A stretch of DNA of 42,994 bases from Akkermansia muciniphila (GTDB lineage Bacteria; Verrucomicrobiota; Verrucomicrobiia; Verrucomicrobiales; DEV007). The notes beneath the pieces were generated by a model that was not told the DNA's origin, made no database searches, and saw only the letters and a list, made by a program, of their open reading frames with translations. The stretch lies in NCBI GenBank assembly GCA_945883495.1, contig CAMCXS010000052.1:1-42994 (forward strand), written 5' to 3'. The position numbers were made by a program, and so were the translations under genes. Shown piece after piece: positions 1,320 to 37,006 of the stretch (the stretch's first letter is position 1; every line of letters starts with the position of its first letter).

Positions 1320-2336
1320 ATGATCACCATCGACTTTGCTTCCTTCCTCCCGCCGCGGCCTGCGCGCGGCGTCACGACGGCTCAGTTTGTGGATGCCGGG
1401 GACCGCATCGCCGCCGTGCTGCTCGATCCCAAAGATGGCTTGCCCTCCCATGAGACGGGGCTGCGGGAGATGGTGACAGACGTGGAGGCGGGCATTCGGC
1501 ACTTGGATACGCGCTTGGGAGCCGTGCGCTCCAGCGCGTTCACGGTCCAGAAGAAGGTGGCCCATGAGAATCGTTTAAAGTGCTTTGCCGCTCTGCGTGG
1601 CGGGGCCAACGGGATCGTGACCGATCCGGATCCGCAAACGGCGGCGGCAAAGCGGGCGGCGGCCGCGGTGGTGCTGGAGCCCGTGGCCCGGCTCGGTGCG
1701 GCGCTTCGGGACAAGACCCGGGCGGAAGCAAGCACGGCGCTGCGGCTGGTTTTTAAGGAGTGTGACAAGCCGGAAATCCAGTCGGCGCTTCAGGAGACGG
1801 AGTTGTCGCGATTCTATGGGCTGCTTAAGGCTGCTCACCAAGAGTATATGCAAGTCCTGCGCGAAGAAGGACAGCAGGGGGCGGATGGAGAGTCCGCCGA
1901 GGATACCGAGTCCGATGCCAAATCCCCGGGGAATGAGCGGCAGGAAACGGCGAAATCGAAGCCTGGGAATGCCAATGAGGCTGCGCAGGCACCTGCGGCG
2001 GATGGAACGACCACGCAGCGGCAGTTGAAGGATGGCATCGTGGAGCTATTGGACGTGATCTTTCATGACATGACCTACCACGCGGCGAAAGGGCGGGAGC
2101 CATATCGCCACCTGCTGGCGCGTTGCCGGGACATCGTTCTGGAAATCAATAGCCACGCCAAGCTGCGGGTGACCCGGGCCAAAACAGCGGCGGCGAAAAA
2201 GGCTGCCGCGACCGGCGGCCATGCCCGGACGGAACGGGCTGGCGAGGCCCAAGCGGCCGCGCCGGAAAAGCTGGAGCGCGGAAACAGCCCGGGCGTTCCG
2301 CAGGTATCGTCGAACGGTGCGGGATTGTCCTCTTGA
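1320..2336 (+). CDS. DUF6261-like protein, copy 1, with basic Ala/Lys tail
   Basis: 338 residues from the ATG at 1320; the frame is open upstream to about 1221 but no ribosome-binding site favours either start. Sequence shows a helical N-terminal part rich in charged heptads with ENRLKCFAALRGG near residue 87, an acidic low-complexity insert (about 180-235), then a second helical part. The tail is lysine/alanine rich (AKTAAAKKAAA) and looks like nucleic-acid-binding tails. The pattern of an N-terminal helical block, a conserved D/E-N-R-x-x-F-x-x-L segment and a C-terminal LK-x-x-I-x-x-LL segment matches the second gene at 35194 and, from memory, the uncharacterised DUF6261 family. Its function is unknown. 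It lies next to 41-bp array 1. Confidence 0.75.
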   Translation: MITIDFASFLPPRPARGVTTAQFVDAGDRIAAVLLDPKDGLPSHETGLREMVTDVEAGIRHLDTRLGAVRSSAFTVQKKVAHENRLKCFAALRGGANGIVTDPDPQTAAAKRAAAAVVLEPVARLGAALRDKTRAEASTALRLVFKECDKPEIQSALQETELSRFYGLLKAAHQEYMQVLREEGQQGADGESAEDTESDAKSPGNERQETAKSKPGNANEAAQAPAADGTTTQRQLKDGIVELLDVIFHDMTYHAAKGREPYRHLLARCRDIVLEINSHAKLRVTRAKTAAAKKAAATGGHARTERAGEAQAAAPEKLERGNSPGVPQVSSNGAGLSS

Positions 2337-6292: not shown

Positions 6293-7132
6293 GTGACGAC
6301 ATTCGCCCATCTTTCGGATCTGCATTTTGGGAGGCTGCACGGAGAGGCGGCGGATGCTCTGCTTGGCGATCTTTGGACAAAGAATCCCGATCTCATTGTC
6401 GTCAGTGGCGATCTGACGCAGACGGCTGGAGGGCGGGAGTTTGAAGCTGCGCGGGAGTATTTGAGGCAGATGCCCAAGCATCCCGTGGTGGTGCCTGGAA
6501 ATCACGATCTGCCGGCGTGGAATCTGGTGGAGCGCTTTACGGCGCCAACCTGGAGATTTCGCAGATATATTGAGCCGGAGCGCTTTCCGTTGCAGGAGAC
6601 GGAGGACGTTGTCGTGCTGGGAATCAATTCGACTAGGCCGCACGGATGGTATTGGGACTGGGGGCGAGGGAGAATCAATCTGACCCAGATCGGCCATATT
6701 CGGAGAGTGTTCGCGCGTCGTCTCGAGAGCAAGCTCTGCGTTGTGGCAGCCCATCACCCCTTCCTGCGTCCTCCCCAGGAAAAGCGTCATCTAGTCCATG
6801 GCCCGCGCGATTTGATGCGCCTGCTGGCGGACTGCGGCGTGGACTTGCTGCTCGCGGGACATTTCCACAAGGTGCACACGGAGTTGGCGGCGACTCGGCA
6901 CCCCAGTACCCCGCGGATTGTGGTGGCTCAGGCTTCGACCTCTACCTCGTATCGCTTCCGGGCGGAGCCAAATGCTTACAATTGGTTCGAGTATGACCGT
7001 GGGCGGCTGCACGTGGTCGTGCATACATGGCAAGATGGTCAGTTTGCCGCTGCCTCGGAGAAGACTTACGTCAATTGGCATGGGCACTGGGAGCACGAAA
7101 CCCCTAAAGCGCGGGAAACCCATGGCACGTAG
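6293..7132 (+). CDS. Calcineurin-like metallophosphoesterase
   Basis: 279 residues with a GTG start 3 bases after the kinase stop; GGGAGGG about 14 bases upstream may serve as ribosome-binding site. All metal-binding motifs are visible: HLSDLHFG (6-13), SGDLT (38-42), GNHD (69-72), AHHPF (153-157) and GHFHKVH (189-195). The protein is cytosolic (no signal peptide). Its substrate is unknown; position before Ku and LigD suggests a nucleic-acid end-processing or nucleotide role, but pairing with a lipid kinase would equally fit a lipid phosphatase. Confidence 0.88.
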   Translation: MTTFAHLSDLHFGRLHGEAADALLGDLWTKNPDLIVVSGDLTQTAGGREFEAAREYLRQMPKHPVVVPGNHDLPAWNLVERFTAPTWRFRRYIEPERFPLQETEDVVVLGINSTRPHGWYWDWGRGRINLTQIGHIRRVFARRLESKLCVVAAHHPFLRPPQEKRHLVHGPRDLMRLLADCGVDLLLAGHFHKVHTELAATRHPSTPRIVVAQASTSTSYRFRAEPNAYNWFEYDRGRLHVVVHTWQDGQFAAASEKTYVNWHGHWEHETPKARETHGT

Positions 7133-18194: not shown

Positions 18195-20621
18195 ATGAGT
18201 TTATTTACTTCAATTTCCCTGCGGCAGCTGAGTTTTACGAGTTTGGTTGTGCTTTCGGCTGGCCTGATTATGGCTGCTATGTTGTACACCTACGGCAAAC
18301 GAGACCGGGAGATCCAGCAGGAGCGCGCGATCTCGGAAACGACGTTCCGGATGAGCCAAGCACTGCGCGGCCGCGACTTGGGTCGGCACGAGTCCATCTC
18401 CGAGGCCATGAACTCGATCTGTTCGGACCAAAACGAATACGCCGTCTTCGCCCGGGAGTCGCAAGGCCAAGGCTGGCGGATGGTGTATGCCAACGCGGTT
18501 GACAAGGTGGATATGGCTATCGACCTGGAGACAAGTTCAGCGCTGAGCAATGCCAAGGAAGGGAGGACGGCGATGAGCGTGCGCGAAGAATTTGAGCCGT
18601 CGGATCTGACAAAGAAACGAAGTGACGAAGAGGCGGATCCATCTCGAATGCGCCGAGTCACGGTAGCGGCGCCGATTTTCTCATTGGAACCGGATGCAAA
18701 AGGGAGTGTGGCTCAGGTGGGAGTGGTCGCGCTCCGGGAAGACTTTCCGTCGCACTCCACCAATTTGGGGCGGTATGCGACGCAGGTGGGCCTGGGGTTG
18801 ATCTTGGCGTTGTTGATGGCGGTTTCAGCCGGCTGGCTCTTTATCCGGGGCATGTCCCGGGACATTCAGGCATTGGTTCAGGGGATTGATCAGGTTTCCC
18901 AGGGGCGTTACGAGTATCGCATCAAAGTGACCCGGAAGGATGAGATCGGACGAGCGCAGACGGGATTCAATCTGCTGGCCCAGTATTTGGAGCGCGCCCG
19001 GGCAAAGGATAACGAGGCGATGCGGGAGCTGCTGACGGCGAAGAAAGAATCCGAAGCGGCCATGCTCGCGAAATCAGATTTCCTGGCAAACATGAGCCAC
19101 GAAATCCGCACGCCGATGAATGGGATCATCGGAACCACCAGTTTGGTGCTGGAGACGCCGTTGAGCACCCAACAGCGAGACATGCTCAAGATCATCCGGG
19201 CCAGTGGACAATCTTTGCTGCATATCATCAACGACGTCCTCGACTACTCGAAGCTGGACACGGCCAAGATGGTGCTAGACGAGACCCCAGCCGACCTTCG
19301 CAAACTGTTTGATGAGGTGGGCGAGATGTTTGCTCCCACGATGGCGGAGCGGAATCTGGAATTGGTGCTCCGTGTGGACCGGAGTATCCCGGTTGCGATC
19401 TACGTAGACCGGGAGCGCCTGAAACAGATTTTGGTGAACTTGGTAGGCAACGCCGCAAAGTTCACGGAGAAAGGGGAGATCCAGGTCCGGGCGGAAGCGG
19501 TCGCCTTCAGCGGCAACCTCACGCAGCGGATTCGCATTGAAATAGAGGACACTGGGATTGGGATTCCGGAGAACAAGCTCGAGACGATTTTCGAGGCGTT
19601 CCAGCAGGCGGATGTGACCACGACTCGCAAATACGGTGGTTCGGGATTAGGATTGGCAATCGGCCGCAAGCTCAGTGCCTTGATGAATGGGCATCTCGGC
19701 GTGCGCAGCCAAGTCGGAGTGGGATCCGTGTTTCATCTAGAGTTTCCCTACCGGACGGTGCCCGAGCACTCGGAGATCCCCAATAAGAACCGGCTACTCG
19801 CGGAGCTGAAGCAGCGCCGGATCGCGGTGATTGCCAAAGGTTCGTCGGCACAGCTGATGAGCGGTTACTTGCGGGAGTGGGGGGCGTTGGCGACGTGCGT
19901 GCCTGGATTGGACGTGACGGCGTTGCAGCAACTTGCTGGAACTGAGCCAGAAGCCATCGTGGTGGAGTCGAACGTGGCGCCGGTCGATCAACTGCAAGCG
20001 TTTCTGCGGAGGCTGCTTGAGGCGAAATTTCCGACTGTGGTGGTGAGCCGCGTTGGCGAGTCTGTGGATTGGCTGGGGGCGCAGACGGATTTGCTGCAAT
20101 GGGTGACCAAGCCGGTCAAGGAATTGGATTTAATTCACCGGTGCGCTGACGCCGTTAGCGGCCGCGCACCCGCGTTGAGTCATGAGGACGGGATTGTGTC
20201 CACGCAACATGGGGGAACATTTGCCTCCCAGTTTCCGGGAAAAGTGCTGCTCGTGGAAGATCAGCCGATGAATCAGAAGATCGTCTCCATGATGCTGCAG
20301 AAGCTGGGCTATGAAGTCGAAATCGCTGACAACGGACGTGAGGCGGTCGATCTGGTGAACGGTGGAGGTGCCTTTGACCTGGTGCTGATGGATCTGCAAA
20401 TGCCGGTGATGGGTGGGGTGGAGGCCTCAAAGGAAATCCGTCGGAACTTCCTGCTCCCGAAGCAGCCTGTGATTGTGGCCCTGACCGGGCATGCCCTGAC
20501 GGGCGTCCGCGAGGAGTGCCGCAAGGCGGGGATGGACCGGTTCATGACGAAGCCGGTCTCTTTGGACGACTTAAGACGCTGCATTAAGGATTCTCTGGGA
20601 ACCCGAAAAGTAGCAGCTTGA
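18195..20621 (+). CDS. Hybrid sensor histidine kinase with pseudo-receiver and receiver
   Basis: 808 residues from the ATG at 18195; ATG codons at 18150 and 18168 are alternatives. Two membrane segments (about 12-32 and 200-222) enclose a periplasmic sensor domain with no recognised fold. A HAMP domain follows. The kinase core has the phosphorylated histidine in [10 protein letters not shown] (His302), NLVGNAAKF (N box), and DTGIGIPE and GSGLGLAI (G boxes). After that comes a degenerate receiver-like domain (about 530-650) whose aspartate is replaced (VVESNVAP), and a full receiver with Asp733 in [11 protein letters not shown]. The partner regulator and signal are unknown. Confidence 0.93.
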
Positions 20622-35193: not shown

Positions 35194-35937
35194 ATGGAAA
35201 CACTGCACACGACTTTTCTGACTACTGATGAACTGGTGGCCGCCTCGGATCAATTGTTGCCGGTCCTGCGAGAAACGCTGGTGGGGAATCCGCTGCTCCT
35301 CGCCGTGGCGGCGGAGGCGGCGGCCGATGTGAACGCCATTAACTTGGCCGCCACCCGGGAACAGGGGAACAAGCTGACCGATCCCATCAAAGCGGCCGAC
35401 GGCGCGAGGGACAATGCGTTCCGCACCCTGCGCGATTTCGCCAACGTCTGGGCGCACAACGAGACCGCCGCGGAAGCGAACCGGACCGCCGGGAATCGCC
35501 TGAGCGCCATTTTCAGCAAGCACGGGAATTCCCTGCACCGGCTGGGCTACAACAAGCAGAGCGGCGCCCTGGAAGGCTTGTTTGCCGATCTGGCCTCCGC
35601 GCAGTCCCAAGCGGACTTGAAACAGCTCAACTTGAACAGCTTCCATGCGGAACTGATCGCCGCGCAAGACGCGTTTGAAGCCGTTTGGGCCCAACGTTCG
35701 AATCCCTCCACGCAGGACACCCTGCCGTTGCTTGGGGAGCACGTCACTCCGTTGAAACGGCGACTCAGCTTCCTTTTGGAAGCGGTGGAGCAGTGGCAGC
35801 GCTTGGGGTTGCCCGAGACCACCGAGCCGTCGGTGACCAAGCTGAACGTCATCATCACGGATCTCATGACGCCGGTGCTGGCCCGGCAGACTCGCGAAGA
35901 AAACCTAGCCGCCAAGGAAGCCGCTCCCAAAAGCTGA
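35194..35937 (+). CDS. DUF6261-like protein, copy 2
   Basis: 247 residues, all helical, no signal peptide. Features that match the DUF6261 family as I remember it: GARDNAFRTLRDFANVWAH (70-88), an HGNSLHRLGYNKQSGALEGL-like block (110-129), and a C-terminal LKRRLSFLLEAVEQWQRLGL segment (188-207). Copy 1 at 1320 has corresponding segments, but with an acidic insert and a basic tail that this copy lacks. The 41-bp array 2 begins 25 bases after the stop. Function is unknown. No good ribosome-binding site is visible at the ATG. Confidence 0.78.
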   Translation: METLHTTFLTTDELVAASDQLLPVLRETLVGNPLLLAVAAEAAADVNAINLAATREQGNKLTDPIKAADGARDNAFRTLRDFANVWAHNETAAEANRTAGNRLSAIFSKHGNSLHRLGYNKQSGALEGLFADLASAQSQADLKQLNLNSFHAELIAAQDAFEAVWAQRSNPSTQDTLPLLGEHVTPLKRRLSFLLEAVEQWQRLGLPETTEPSVTKLNVIITDLMTPVLARQTREENLAAKEAAPKS

Positions 35938-35961
35938 GCCCACGGGCGGTCGGGTGCCGAT

Positions 35962-36293
35962 TCCACCGAATTGCCCCGCGCAAGCCGTTGGCGGCCAAAT
36001 CGGTGACGAATTTGGCTCGCGCAGTCCGTTGGGGGCCAAAACAGTGACGAATTTGGTCCGCGCAGACTGTTGGCGGTCAAAACAGTGACTGATTTGGCTC
36101 GCGCAGACTGTTGGCGGTCAAAACAGTGACGAATTTGGCTCGCGCAGACTGTTGGCGGTCAAAACAGTGACTGATTTGGCTCGCGCAGACTGTTGGGGGC
36201 CAAAACAGTGACTGATTTGGCTCGCGCAGACTGTTGGCGGTCAAAACAGTGACTGATTTGGCTCGCGCAGACTGTTTTGGACCGTTGGCGGCC
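35962..36293. repeat. Tandem array 2: exact 41-bp units with hairpins
   Basis: GTGAC starts units at 36003, 36044, 36085, 36126, 36167, 36208 and 36249, every 41 bp. Six units are complete; a diverged unit precedes (35962-36002) and a disrupted one follows (36249-36293). Two alternating versions exist: GTGACGAATTTGG and GTGACTGATTTGG. The unit continues CTCGCGCAG-ACTGTTGGCGGTC-AAAACA. A stem ACTGTT/AACAGT with a 9-base loop spans the end of one unit and the first two bases of the next. The terminal units have CCGTTGGCGGCCAA instead. The units are near identical, so this is not CRISPR. Confidence 0.95.
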
Positions 36294-36530
36294 AAGGATT
36301 CCAGGCCCAACGGGCCGAGACAAGAAAGCCCAGGGCGCAGGGAGCGTTTCGCGACCGCAGCCCTGGGAAATCCCACGACATCCGTCCCGCTCTGAAAGGT
36401 GCGGGAAAATCGGGACATCGGCCGGTTGTGTCGCGCTTCGAGCGCTCGAGGCCCGATGGGGCACGGATGAAATGGATGCGCACGGAGATGAAGATCGAGA
36501 TCACCGTGGACGGTCCTGCGTGCCTCCTTC

Positions 36531-36600
36531 CGTAGGTTGGGCATTCTTGCCCGACCGTGTAAGCCCCAATGAATCGGGCGGACAACATGTCCACCCTACG
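36531..36600. repeat. REP-like palindromic element, copy 1
   Basis: 70-bp core closed by CGTAGG/CCTACG. Inside are two hairpins, GGGCA-TTCT-TGCCC and GGACA-ACA-TGTCC. The second copy lies 211 bp to the right. Confidence 0.85.
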
Positions 36601-36741
36601 ACATCGAACCAAGTTCCAACGGAACTCAGGCATTCCTTGGATCGCCCAGCCGGAGGGCGGATCGCCCACGCCACTCCTCCTTAGGGCTGAAAGGCGCAGC
36701 AGGAGGAATGCAAATCACGATCGCTCCTGCGTGCCTCCGTC

Positions 36742-36811
36742 CGTAGGTTGGGCATTCTTGCCCGACCGTGTAAGTCCCAATCCTCCGTGCGGACAACATG
36801 TCCACCCTACG
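36742..36811. repeat. REP-like palindromic element, copy 2
   Basis: Same length and same hairpins as copy 1. Differences cluster in the middle (CCAATCCTCCGTG versus CCAATGAATCGGG). Flanks on both sides are also related to those of copy 1. Confidence 0.85.
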
Positions 36812-37006
36812 ACATCGAACCAAGTTTCGCCAAAGATCAGGACTTCCTTGTGGCGCGCAGCCGGAGCAAGGAAAGCATCTCCGCCAGATCGACCAAGCCT
36901 TCGCTCCCTCGCCTCGAAACCCGCCCGGTGTGCATTCCGGATCGGATTCTGGGCTCCTGGTTTGACGTTTAGGCCTGTTTTCGGGCAGTGTGACCGGCAT
37001 TGCCTC

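What the first reader, a model, noticed from the sequence alone, without database searches (positions are those of the whole stretch)
35194..36293. DUF6261-like gene followed by a 41-bp tandem hairpin array: candidate undescribed two-part locus
Seen: gene 2 ends at 35937 and array 2 starts 25 bases later, with units exactly 41 bp apart. The other DUF6261-like gene in this window (1320-2336) also has an array with exactly 41-bp period, 180 bp upstream, although the repeat sequence is different. Two independent co-occurrences in 43 kb, with the same period, are unlikely by chance. Inference: the arrays and the proteins work together, for example as an RNA-hairpin/protein or an architectural DNA/protein system (41 bp is close to four helical turns). 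DUF6261 has no known function that I can name.
Basis: partly seen in the sequence, partly recalled or inferred. Interest (0 to 1): 0.9.

Follow-up and report, generated by a model that had tools for sequence, protein, structure and literature searches.

The report
DUF6261 genes with phased repeat arrays
Genes for a bacterial protein family of unknown function, DUF6261, mostly sit next to a short stretch of DNA repeated every 41-42 letters (four turns of the double helix), although the repeated letters differ from place to place, which points to an undescribed protein-plus-DNA-array system.

Summary
Both window arrays exist (905-1138, 35987-36276, period 41). Gene 2 is DUF6261 (PF19775, 72.9 bits); gene 1 is a divergent relative. 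Array sequences differ; what is kept is the period (mean step 41.57 bp, four turns of 10.4 bp) and inverted repeats with compensating changes. In two paralogue groups gene plus array is the shared unit in unrelated flanks; more distant pairs match over the gene only. Array 2 has five further copies in its genome, on contigs with no listed DUF6261 gene. No strand preference was found, which leans weakly to duplex DNA over RNA. Best reading: a DNA platform for its own DUF6261 protein and dispersed cognate arrays. Binding is inferred, not shown; the protein has no recognisable DNA-binding domain and is near-neutral. No description was found in the papers searched.

The parts
35194..35937 (+). Gene 2, DUF6261 protein, 247 aa, predicted all-helical
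   Evidence: PF19775 E 3.5e-20, 72.9 bits against cut-off 27; AlphaFold2 model pLDDT 94.6, pTM 0.68
35987..36276 (.). Array 2: 7.1 tandem units of 41 bp with internal inverted repeats, directly downstream of gene 2; degenerate partial units reach from about 35963 to about 36294
   Evidence: TRF score 461; inverted repeats above unit-shuffled controls; five further places in the genome at 82-91% identity
905..1138 (.). Array 1: 5.7 tandem units of 41 bp with internal inverted repeats, 181 bp upstream of gene 1
   Evidence: TRF score 370; inverted repeats above unit-shuffled controls; one further place in the genome at 74% over its full length
1320..2336 (+). Gene 1, divergent DUF6261-type protein, 338 aa
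   Evidence: 15.3 bits to PF19775, below cut-off; similar to other own-genome DUF6261 proteins, best E 3.9e-37

Best explanation
Each locus is a compact cassette: a gene for a small all-helical DUF6261 protein plus a tandem array of about 2-9 units of 41-42 bp. The array is a double-stranded DNA platform. Units carry imperfect inverted repeats and are set four helical turns apart, so that bound proteins lie on one face of the helix. The DUF6261 protein encoded beside it is the cognate binder and also binds related arrays elsewhere in the same genome, so each paralogue with its arrays is a private protein-address pair that organises or marks those sites. Shown: the association, the period, the inverted repeats with compensating changes, gene plus array as the unit shared by the closest paralogues, and dispersed copies of the four arrays searched. 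Inferred: that the protein binds the array, that DNA and not RNA is the active form, cognate pairing, and any physiological role.
For: Association 67 of 82 against 19 of 828; 55 of 82 against 17 of 828 by TRF; 33 of 46 further DUF6261 loci by TRF anywhere in the locus (one of them, L164, is an identical copy of a locus among the 82). Of 69 best-lag calls (scan 20-130 bp) beside DUF6261 genes 68 fall on 40-43, 81-86 or 122-128 bp. Unit steps 40:3, 41:139, 42:161, 43:11, mean 41.57 = 4 x 10.39 (arrays preselected for this period range). Inverted repeats 2.3 against 0.7 per 100 bp in unit-shuffled arrays; folding z median -3.9. Compensating changes between units: 333 of 494 cells paired against 253 +/- 8 in shuffles, highest of 500 shuffles 277. 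No strand preference: gene strand more stable in 45 of 90, G-T against A-C columns 54:38, p 0.12, per-array asymmetry 58 against 56.9 +/- 5 expected. Arrays lie upstream at most loci and downstream at some, as a linked site may. In C6/C22 the shared block is gene plus array, ending within 5 bp of the outer edges; in C30/C58 it ends at the outer array edge. In one pair of Parabacteroides species the array is 95-100% identical per 60-bp block against 88-98% in the coding region. Array 2 has five other places, array 1 one; a DUF6261-linked array of G588 has three.
Against: The protein has no recognisable DNA-binding domain and no clear fold match and is near-neutral: net charge -0.7 on average in the Bacteroidales set, +1.2 in the own genome, -7 for gene 2. 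No special 10.4-bp A/T periodicity inside arrays. The mismatch count leans slightly to G-T on the gene strand (54:38; 180:132 cells by another selection, with no such excess in three shuffled controls), as RNA would. The covariation test chose the best dyad on the same data and its shuffles ignore that units descend from one another, so it overstates. Fifteen of 82 genes showed no array by the sensitive test; the two same-genus loci L099 and L100, and L103, L110 and L116, show none. More distant own-genome paralogue pairs match over the gene and leader but not the array (six pairs), and in L122/L123 and L130/L134 genes 86-88% alike have arrays outside the matching stretch. Similar arrays exist without a DUF6261 gene nearby and beside another helical family. 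No expression or binding data exist here.
Confidence: 0.42

Rival explanations
1. Selfish or domesticated dispersal system that works like a REPtron: DUF6261 helps to copy or maintain dispersed arrays of inverted repeats, the cassette being the master copy.
For: Dispersed copies of all four arrays searched; patchy and often multi-copy distribution (5 of 387 genomes of the phylum draw, own genome included, and 26 of 247 of the Bacteroidales draw, with up to 14 matches listed per genome); gene plus array shared between the closest paralogues in unrelated flanks; no neighbour family at more than 5 loci and no fixed neighbour orientation; 11 of 21 own loci within 2 kb of a contig end (arithmetic).
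Against: No credible nuclease, HuH or recombinase domain in the DUF6261 proteins scanned; in the one species pair compared the array is conserved at least as well as the coding region. A RAYT-like gene is near only 3 of 80 DUF6261 regions (two with near-identical RAYT proteins) against a weak match in 1 of 29 other regions.
Confidence: 0.22
2. RNA-protein system: the array is transcribed into a chain of hairpins that the helical DUF6261 bundle binds.
For: Strong folding and compensating changes; slight excess of G-T over A-C mismatches on the gene strand; the centres of the dyads are at chance complementarity, as hairpin loops would be; part of the model overlays re-engineered ROP (1yo7, Z 8.0, rmsd 2.5 over 99 residues; that ROP binds RNA is recalled), though such Z values are common for helical bundles.
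Against: No strand preference in stability (45 of 90) and no per-array strand asymmetry. A hairpin RNA gives no reason for a period fixed at 41-42, whereas 4 x 10.4 does. No Rfam family at gathering score in the window arrays.
Confidence: 0.2
3. Autoregulatory operator: the array is a multi-site operator for the DUF6261 promoter only.
For: Most arrays lie within about 40-570 bp upstream of the start codon.
Against: Arrays lie downstream at window gene 2, C30, C58, L102, L106 and L108. The eight gene-free Bacteroidales arrays read by eye have no fixed relation to gene starts. An operator of up to nine units would be unusual.
Confidence: 0.12
4. Neutral satellite: tandem arrays expand by slippage and the neighbourhood of DUF6261 is accidental.
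For: Unit copy number varies between loci.
Against: Enrichment, fixed period over unlike sequences, compensating changes, conservation of array units in one species pair.
Confidence: 0.02

Closest known systems
PF19775 (DUF6261), Pfam family of unknown function
   Same: 19 of the 21 own-genome loci, gene 2 among them, score over the family cut-off.
   Different: The Pfam title gives no function, and no paper found describes an array.
REPtron (TnpA-REP/RAYT with cognate REP palindromes); PMC8266576, passages seen
   Same: A gene with cognate inverted repeats beside it and dispersed copies of the repeats in the genome.
   Different: TnpA-REP is a HuH protein acting on palindromes with a GTAG motif and is in most cases single-copy. 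Here no HuH domain is found, the repeats form tandem arrays with a 41-42-bp period, and several genomes hold many gene copies.
Phased multi-site nucleoprotein platforms such as plasmid iterons, parS-type centromeres and MatP-matS (recalled)
   Same: Several sites in helical register, a linked gene for the supposed binder, inverted repeats.
   Different: No recurrent neighbour that looks like a partition NTPase or replication initiator, arrays not shared between loci except sister paralogues and dispersed copies, many protein-array pairs per chromosome.
CRISPR and other repeat-spacer arrays (recalled)
   Same: Tandem array beside a protein gene, fixed unit length.
   Different: Units are alike over their whole length without spacers; no match to defence families in the six proteins scanned except weak Csm2 hits (best E 0.014) for L101.

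Membership tests
DUF6261 (PF19775) | Score over the Pfam cut-off of 27 bits | tested here: met
   Gene 2: 72.9 bits
DUF6261 (PF19775), gene 1 | Score over the Pfam cut-off of 27 bits | tested here: not met
   15.3 bits; still similar to members by sequence, best E 3.9e-37
REPtron / RAYT | HuH (Y1) transposase encoded by the linked gene | tested here: not met
   Only DUF6261 found in genes 1 and 2 at E up to 10
REPtron / RAYT | Inverted repeats beside the gene and related ones dispersed in the genome | tested here: met
   (three DUF6261-linked arrays searched, all three with further places)
REPtron / RAYT | GTAG-type motif at the foot of the repeat | not tested
   No systematic count was made
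CRISPR-like array | Repeats separated by unlike spacers | tested here: not met
   Units match over their whole length (91-92% matches, 0% indels)
Partition system (ParABS-like) | Linked partition NTPase | tested here: not met
   Three neighbour families recur at 3 or more loci among 305 neighbour ORFs, none looks like a partition NTPase by eye; families at fewer loci were not examined
Known DNA-binding fold | Structural match to a DNA-binding protein | tested here: inconclusive
   No Foldseek match at E 0.001 or better; VIA-align Z at most 9.2, helical bundles of many kinds
Double-stranded DNA platform | Unit spacing a whole number of helical turns | tested here: met
   Mean step 41.57 bp = 4 x 10.39; arrays there were preselected for this period range, the unselected lag scan is
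Double-stranded DNA platform | Protein binds the array | not testable with these tools
   Needs binding assays or ChIP-seq

The most novel reading that the evidence does not exclude
A new class of bacterial chromosome-addressing system: several to many parallel protein-array pairs per genome, each a DUF6261 protein with its private tandem array of dyads in four-turn register, that marks or bridges a handful of dispersed sites; the same array format is also used by at least one other helical protein family.
Probability: 0.35. Interest if true: 0.92.

Novelty: categorically new. Interest (0 to 1): 0.82.

Why it matters
It gives a protein family of unknown function, found here in Bacteroidales and in the window's phylum, a concrete and testable partner. 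It shows a non-coding element whose period and symmetry are kept while its sequence is free, which ordinary homology searches miss. If the proteins bind their arrays, these genomes carry many parallel DNA-address systems, with consequences for chromosome organisation, selfish DNA and synthetic tools.

Tried and rejected
Coding array: 41 is not a multiple of 3, and 41- and 42-bp steps are about equally common. One 42-bp array, L062:10631-11115, does lie in a coding repeat; it was in the tallies but left out. A 45-bp repeat at L179 also lies in a small repeat ORF.

Phased A-tract curvature: no special signal at 10.4 bp.

Known RNA families: only two tRNAs in the window at gathering score. Defence and phage families: nothing credible in six proteins scanned. 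Phage records: no match with one query protein. Plasmids: one match, a Parabacteroides record with housekeeping genes such as der, era and rpmF, so probably chromosomal. Viral contigs: none in two scans with single proteins, which find close relatives only.

Fold matches: Foldseek best E 0.02 and VIA-align Z up to 9.2, to helical bundles of many kinds; no function read from them. The second family (L088 type) shows no profile similarity to DUF6261 (probability 1.5%).

Bacteroidetes promoter motif near starts: 5 of 61 against 8 of 61 further upstream, uninformative. The distance between two dyad centres within a unit is not evidence of 21-bp phasing, because periodicity alone forces a second centre half a unit away; controls show the same peak.

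Errors and limits of mine: one search read minus-strand loci in the wrong frame; corrected. In some searches some starts are over-extended, so L056 counts as a miss although it has an array. L063 and L059 are cut by contig ends. L212's array lies 605-862 bp upstream, mostly outside the 700-bp limit, and was scored a miss.

Selection: of the Bacteroidales matches listed I fetched 60 regions (61 genes), chosen by me for spread and for room on the contig, not at random; all 61 are counted. In the 46 'other loci' I left out L132, L135 and L136 (same places as L130, L133, L134), L118-L120 (looked at singly; L126 and L127 are the same places as L120 and L119 and are counted) and loci equal to fetched regions; L164 was left in although identical to L144, the place of L198. 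Of 118 arrays 106 remained after removing repeats; 90 with a known gene strand were used, 63 of them passed the pairing cut, 73 of all arrays, 99, and 83 with two or more steps. In some searches I dropped very short matches (E 0.09 to 0.9), and weaker, overlapping or short pieces around the same places.

Controls missing: genomes without DUF6261 are represented by 8 of 20 requested stretches, 136 kb, with one 41-bp array that looks like a 10-bp microsatellite.

Full report
WHAT WAS CHECKED. Gene 2 is a DUF6261 protein (72.9 bits, cut-off 27). Gene 1 falls below the cut-off (15.3 bits) but is related to own-genome members, for example E 3.9e-37 to the one on contig C102.

ENRICHMENT. The window's genome has 21 DUF6261 loci, 19 over the family cut-off. 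TRF and lag scans show arrays of 41-42 bp, or a multiple, beside most of them, with different sequences. I then ran one rule on 82 genes (21 own, 61 Bacteroidales) and on 828 other genes of the same and other stretches. With TRF score at least 70 and period 40-43.3 or a multiple, 55 of 82 (13 of 21 own, 42 of 61 Bacteroidales) against 17 of 828; arrays of other periods between 25 and 60 were found at 1 of 82 against 2 of 828. With a lag scan from 20 to 130 bp, 67 of 82 (15 of 21, 52 of 61) against 19 of 828; 68 of 69 best lags beside DUF6261 genes fall on the 41-42 series, and no DUF6261 gene had only another lag, against 27 of 828 controls. A further 46 DUF6261 loci gave 33 by TRF anywhere within the locus (L164 among them duplicates a locus of the 82). 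The set covers other families of the window's phylum and Parabacteroides and other Bacteroidales, with G+C of 0.35 to 0.59 at the other-family phylum loci. Paralogues are not independent, so the p value of about 1e-68 overstates the evidence, but arrays resemble each other only between a few, mostly sister, loci (9 pairs among 72 arrays at E 1e-4).

DISTRIBUTION. DUF6261 is patchy and often multi-copy: 5 of 387 genomes of the phylum draw, the own genome among them, and 26 of 247 of the Bacteroidales draw have it, with up to 14 matches listed for one genome. Among 38 genomes drawn as relatives only the own and two same-genus ones have it at E 1e-5, and those two, with one copy each, show no array. 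Phage records gave no match and plasmids one, probably chromosomal.

ANATOMY OF THE ARRAY. Steps between units are 40 (3), 41 (139), 42 (161) and 43 (11), mean 41.57 bp, which is four turns of 10.39 bp (the arrays entering this count were chosen for a period near 41.6, so the unselected scan is the safer evidence). Units contain inverted repeats: 2.3 against 0.7 per 100 bp in arrays whose columns were shuffled, above the control in 87% of 106 arrays and at or under p 0.05 in 48%, and folding energies well below such controls (median z -3.9). Within arrays, paired positions that vary on both sides tend to keep pairing: 333 of 494 cells against 253 +/- 8 in shuffles, 44 of 87 columns with two or more pair types. 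The dyad was chosen as the best on the same data and shuffles ignore that units descend from one another, so this is overstated; still, selection or a repair process acting on the inverted repeats is the simplest reading.

DNA OR RNA. If one strand were read as RNA, that strand should fold better and tolerate G-U. The gene strand folds better in 45 of 90; G-T against A-C mismatch columns are 54:38 (p 0.12) with no asymmetry per array; another selection gave 180:132 cells, with no such excess in three shuffled controls. This is weak evidence against RNA, not proof, and the slight G-T lean points the other way. The four-turn spacing and the placement upstream at most loci but downstream at others lean to duplex DNA.

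THE CASSETTE. In the closest own-genome paralogues the homology is gene plus array in unrelated flanks. C6 and C22 match from 2 bp beyond the stop codon to 3-5 bp beyond the outer array end (84%). C30 and C58 match from the outer array end, through the gene, to about 20-90 bp upstream of it, depending on which start is used (82%). C39 matches C6 and C22 over the gene and most of the array (74-75%); C5/C99 are a longer, probably more recent pair (85%). Six more distant pairs (C102, C15, C5 and C99 among each other, and C17/C25) match at 65-72% over gene and leader but not over an array. Between P. distasonis and a related Parabacteroides the array is 95-100% identical per 60-bp block and the coding region 88-98% (one pair). 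Some pairs with genes 86-88% identical have arrays outside the matching stretch (L122/L123, L130/L134), so arrays can also turn over. Neighbouring genes do not recur at more than five loci and their orientation is not fixed (42 same, 32 divergent upstream; 37 and 37 downstream).

DISPERSED COPIES. Array 2 matches five further places in its genome at 82-91%, three of them at contig ends; none is on a contig with a DUF6261 locus, though a gene beyond a contig end cannot be excluded. Array 1 matches one further place at 74%. In genome G588 a DUF6261-linked array has three further places at 79-82% and a gene-free array has four at 77-82%. Whether these G588 places have a DUF6261 gene nearby was not settled, as only 14 of its matches are listed. 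In G611 a gene-free array and its flanks are 91% identical over 408 bp to a DUF6261-linked one.

OTHER PROTEIN FAMILY. In the own genome a second family of about 228 residues (L088 type), with no detected relation to DUF6261 and also predicted helical (pLDDT 81.5 from four sequences), has 42-bp arrays just downstream at C11, C7 and C18, a weaker 42-bp lag signal at a gene fragment on C11, and an 82-bp repeat upstream at C157. The array format is thus not tied to one protein family.

THE PROTEIN. The AlphaFold2 model of gene 2 has pLDDT 94.6 and pTM 0.68 and is all-helical. Nothing in the PDB or in viral models matches beyond general helical bundles. Charge is near neutral. Only R72 (numbering of gene 2) is nearly invariant among 79 members. 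No DNA-binding domain is recognised, so binding is inference.

MECHANISM AND STANDING. I commit to a nucleoprotein platform on duplex DNA with cognate dispersed arrays (0.42), with REPtron-like dispersal (0.22), RNA (0.20) and a simple operator (0.12) as rivals; these are not fully exclusive. What would decide is binding and ChIP-seq. Literature: one paper in the library mentions DUF6261, in a table of mutations (passage seen). Searches for 41/42-bp tandem or direct repeats gave ten papers, judged from the listing only. Combined searches with Porphyromonas, Bacteroidetes and P. distasonis gave none; a fourth gave nothing relevant in the eight papers listed of 73. The REPtron comparison rests on passages of PMC8266576. 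Most subscription papers and all preprints are outside that library.

Counts and selections were recounted against the calls; the gene-only paralogue pairs, the caveat, the inclusion of the coding array and the duplicate L164 were added.

Noticed in passing
L088:17743-18429 (-), arrays at L092:1226-1508, L093:1297-1472, L095:1192-1417: A second helical protein family, with no detected similarity to DUF6261, has 42-bp tandem arrays directly downstream of the gene.
   Followed up: partly
window 36302-36370; full copy L060:19788-19997: A REP-like palindromic element of about 210 bp, or part of it, is found in 7 of 20 own-genome stretches with a DUF6261 gene (the query's own stretch included) and in L071, against 2 of 20 random stretches; in the window it starts 26 bp after array 2.
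   Followed up: partly
L074:18170-18272, L082:9465-9713, L187:15868-16175, L189:384-611 and 6854-7110, L190:804-1202, L191:16154-16354, L193:2983-3160, L199:16567-16711, L202:15285-15535: Arrays of the same period in mostly intergenic DNA without a DUF6261 gene beside them.
   Followed up: partly
L200:9142-9369 and L202:15285-15535: The centres of the inverted repeats flip between A-rich and T-rich from unit to unit while the arms stay, as if the centres had been inverted (read by eye).
   Followed up: no
L218:8934-9548, L222:8846-9412, L070:17879-18604: RAYT-like genes lie directly downstream of DUF6261 in two genomes (near-identical proteins) and about 0.7 kb upstream in the own genome; the family name is recalled from sequence motifs, no family search was run on them.
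   Followed up: partly
L060:15754-15863 and 18521-18716: Two copies of the same array with flank, about 2.7 kb apart, with a Fic-domain gene between them.
   Followed up: no
own genome G000: 11 of 21 DUF6261 loci lie within 2 kb of a contig end, where about 3 would be expected by contig number (arithmetic), as if repeats near them broke the assembly.
   Followed up: no
window about 36515-36615 and 36725-36830: A stretch of roughly 90-100 bp occurs twice in the intergenic region after array 2 (read by eye).
   Followed up: no
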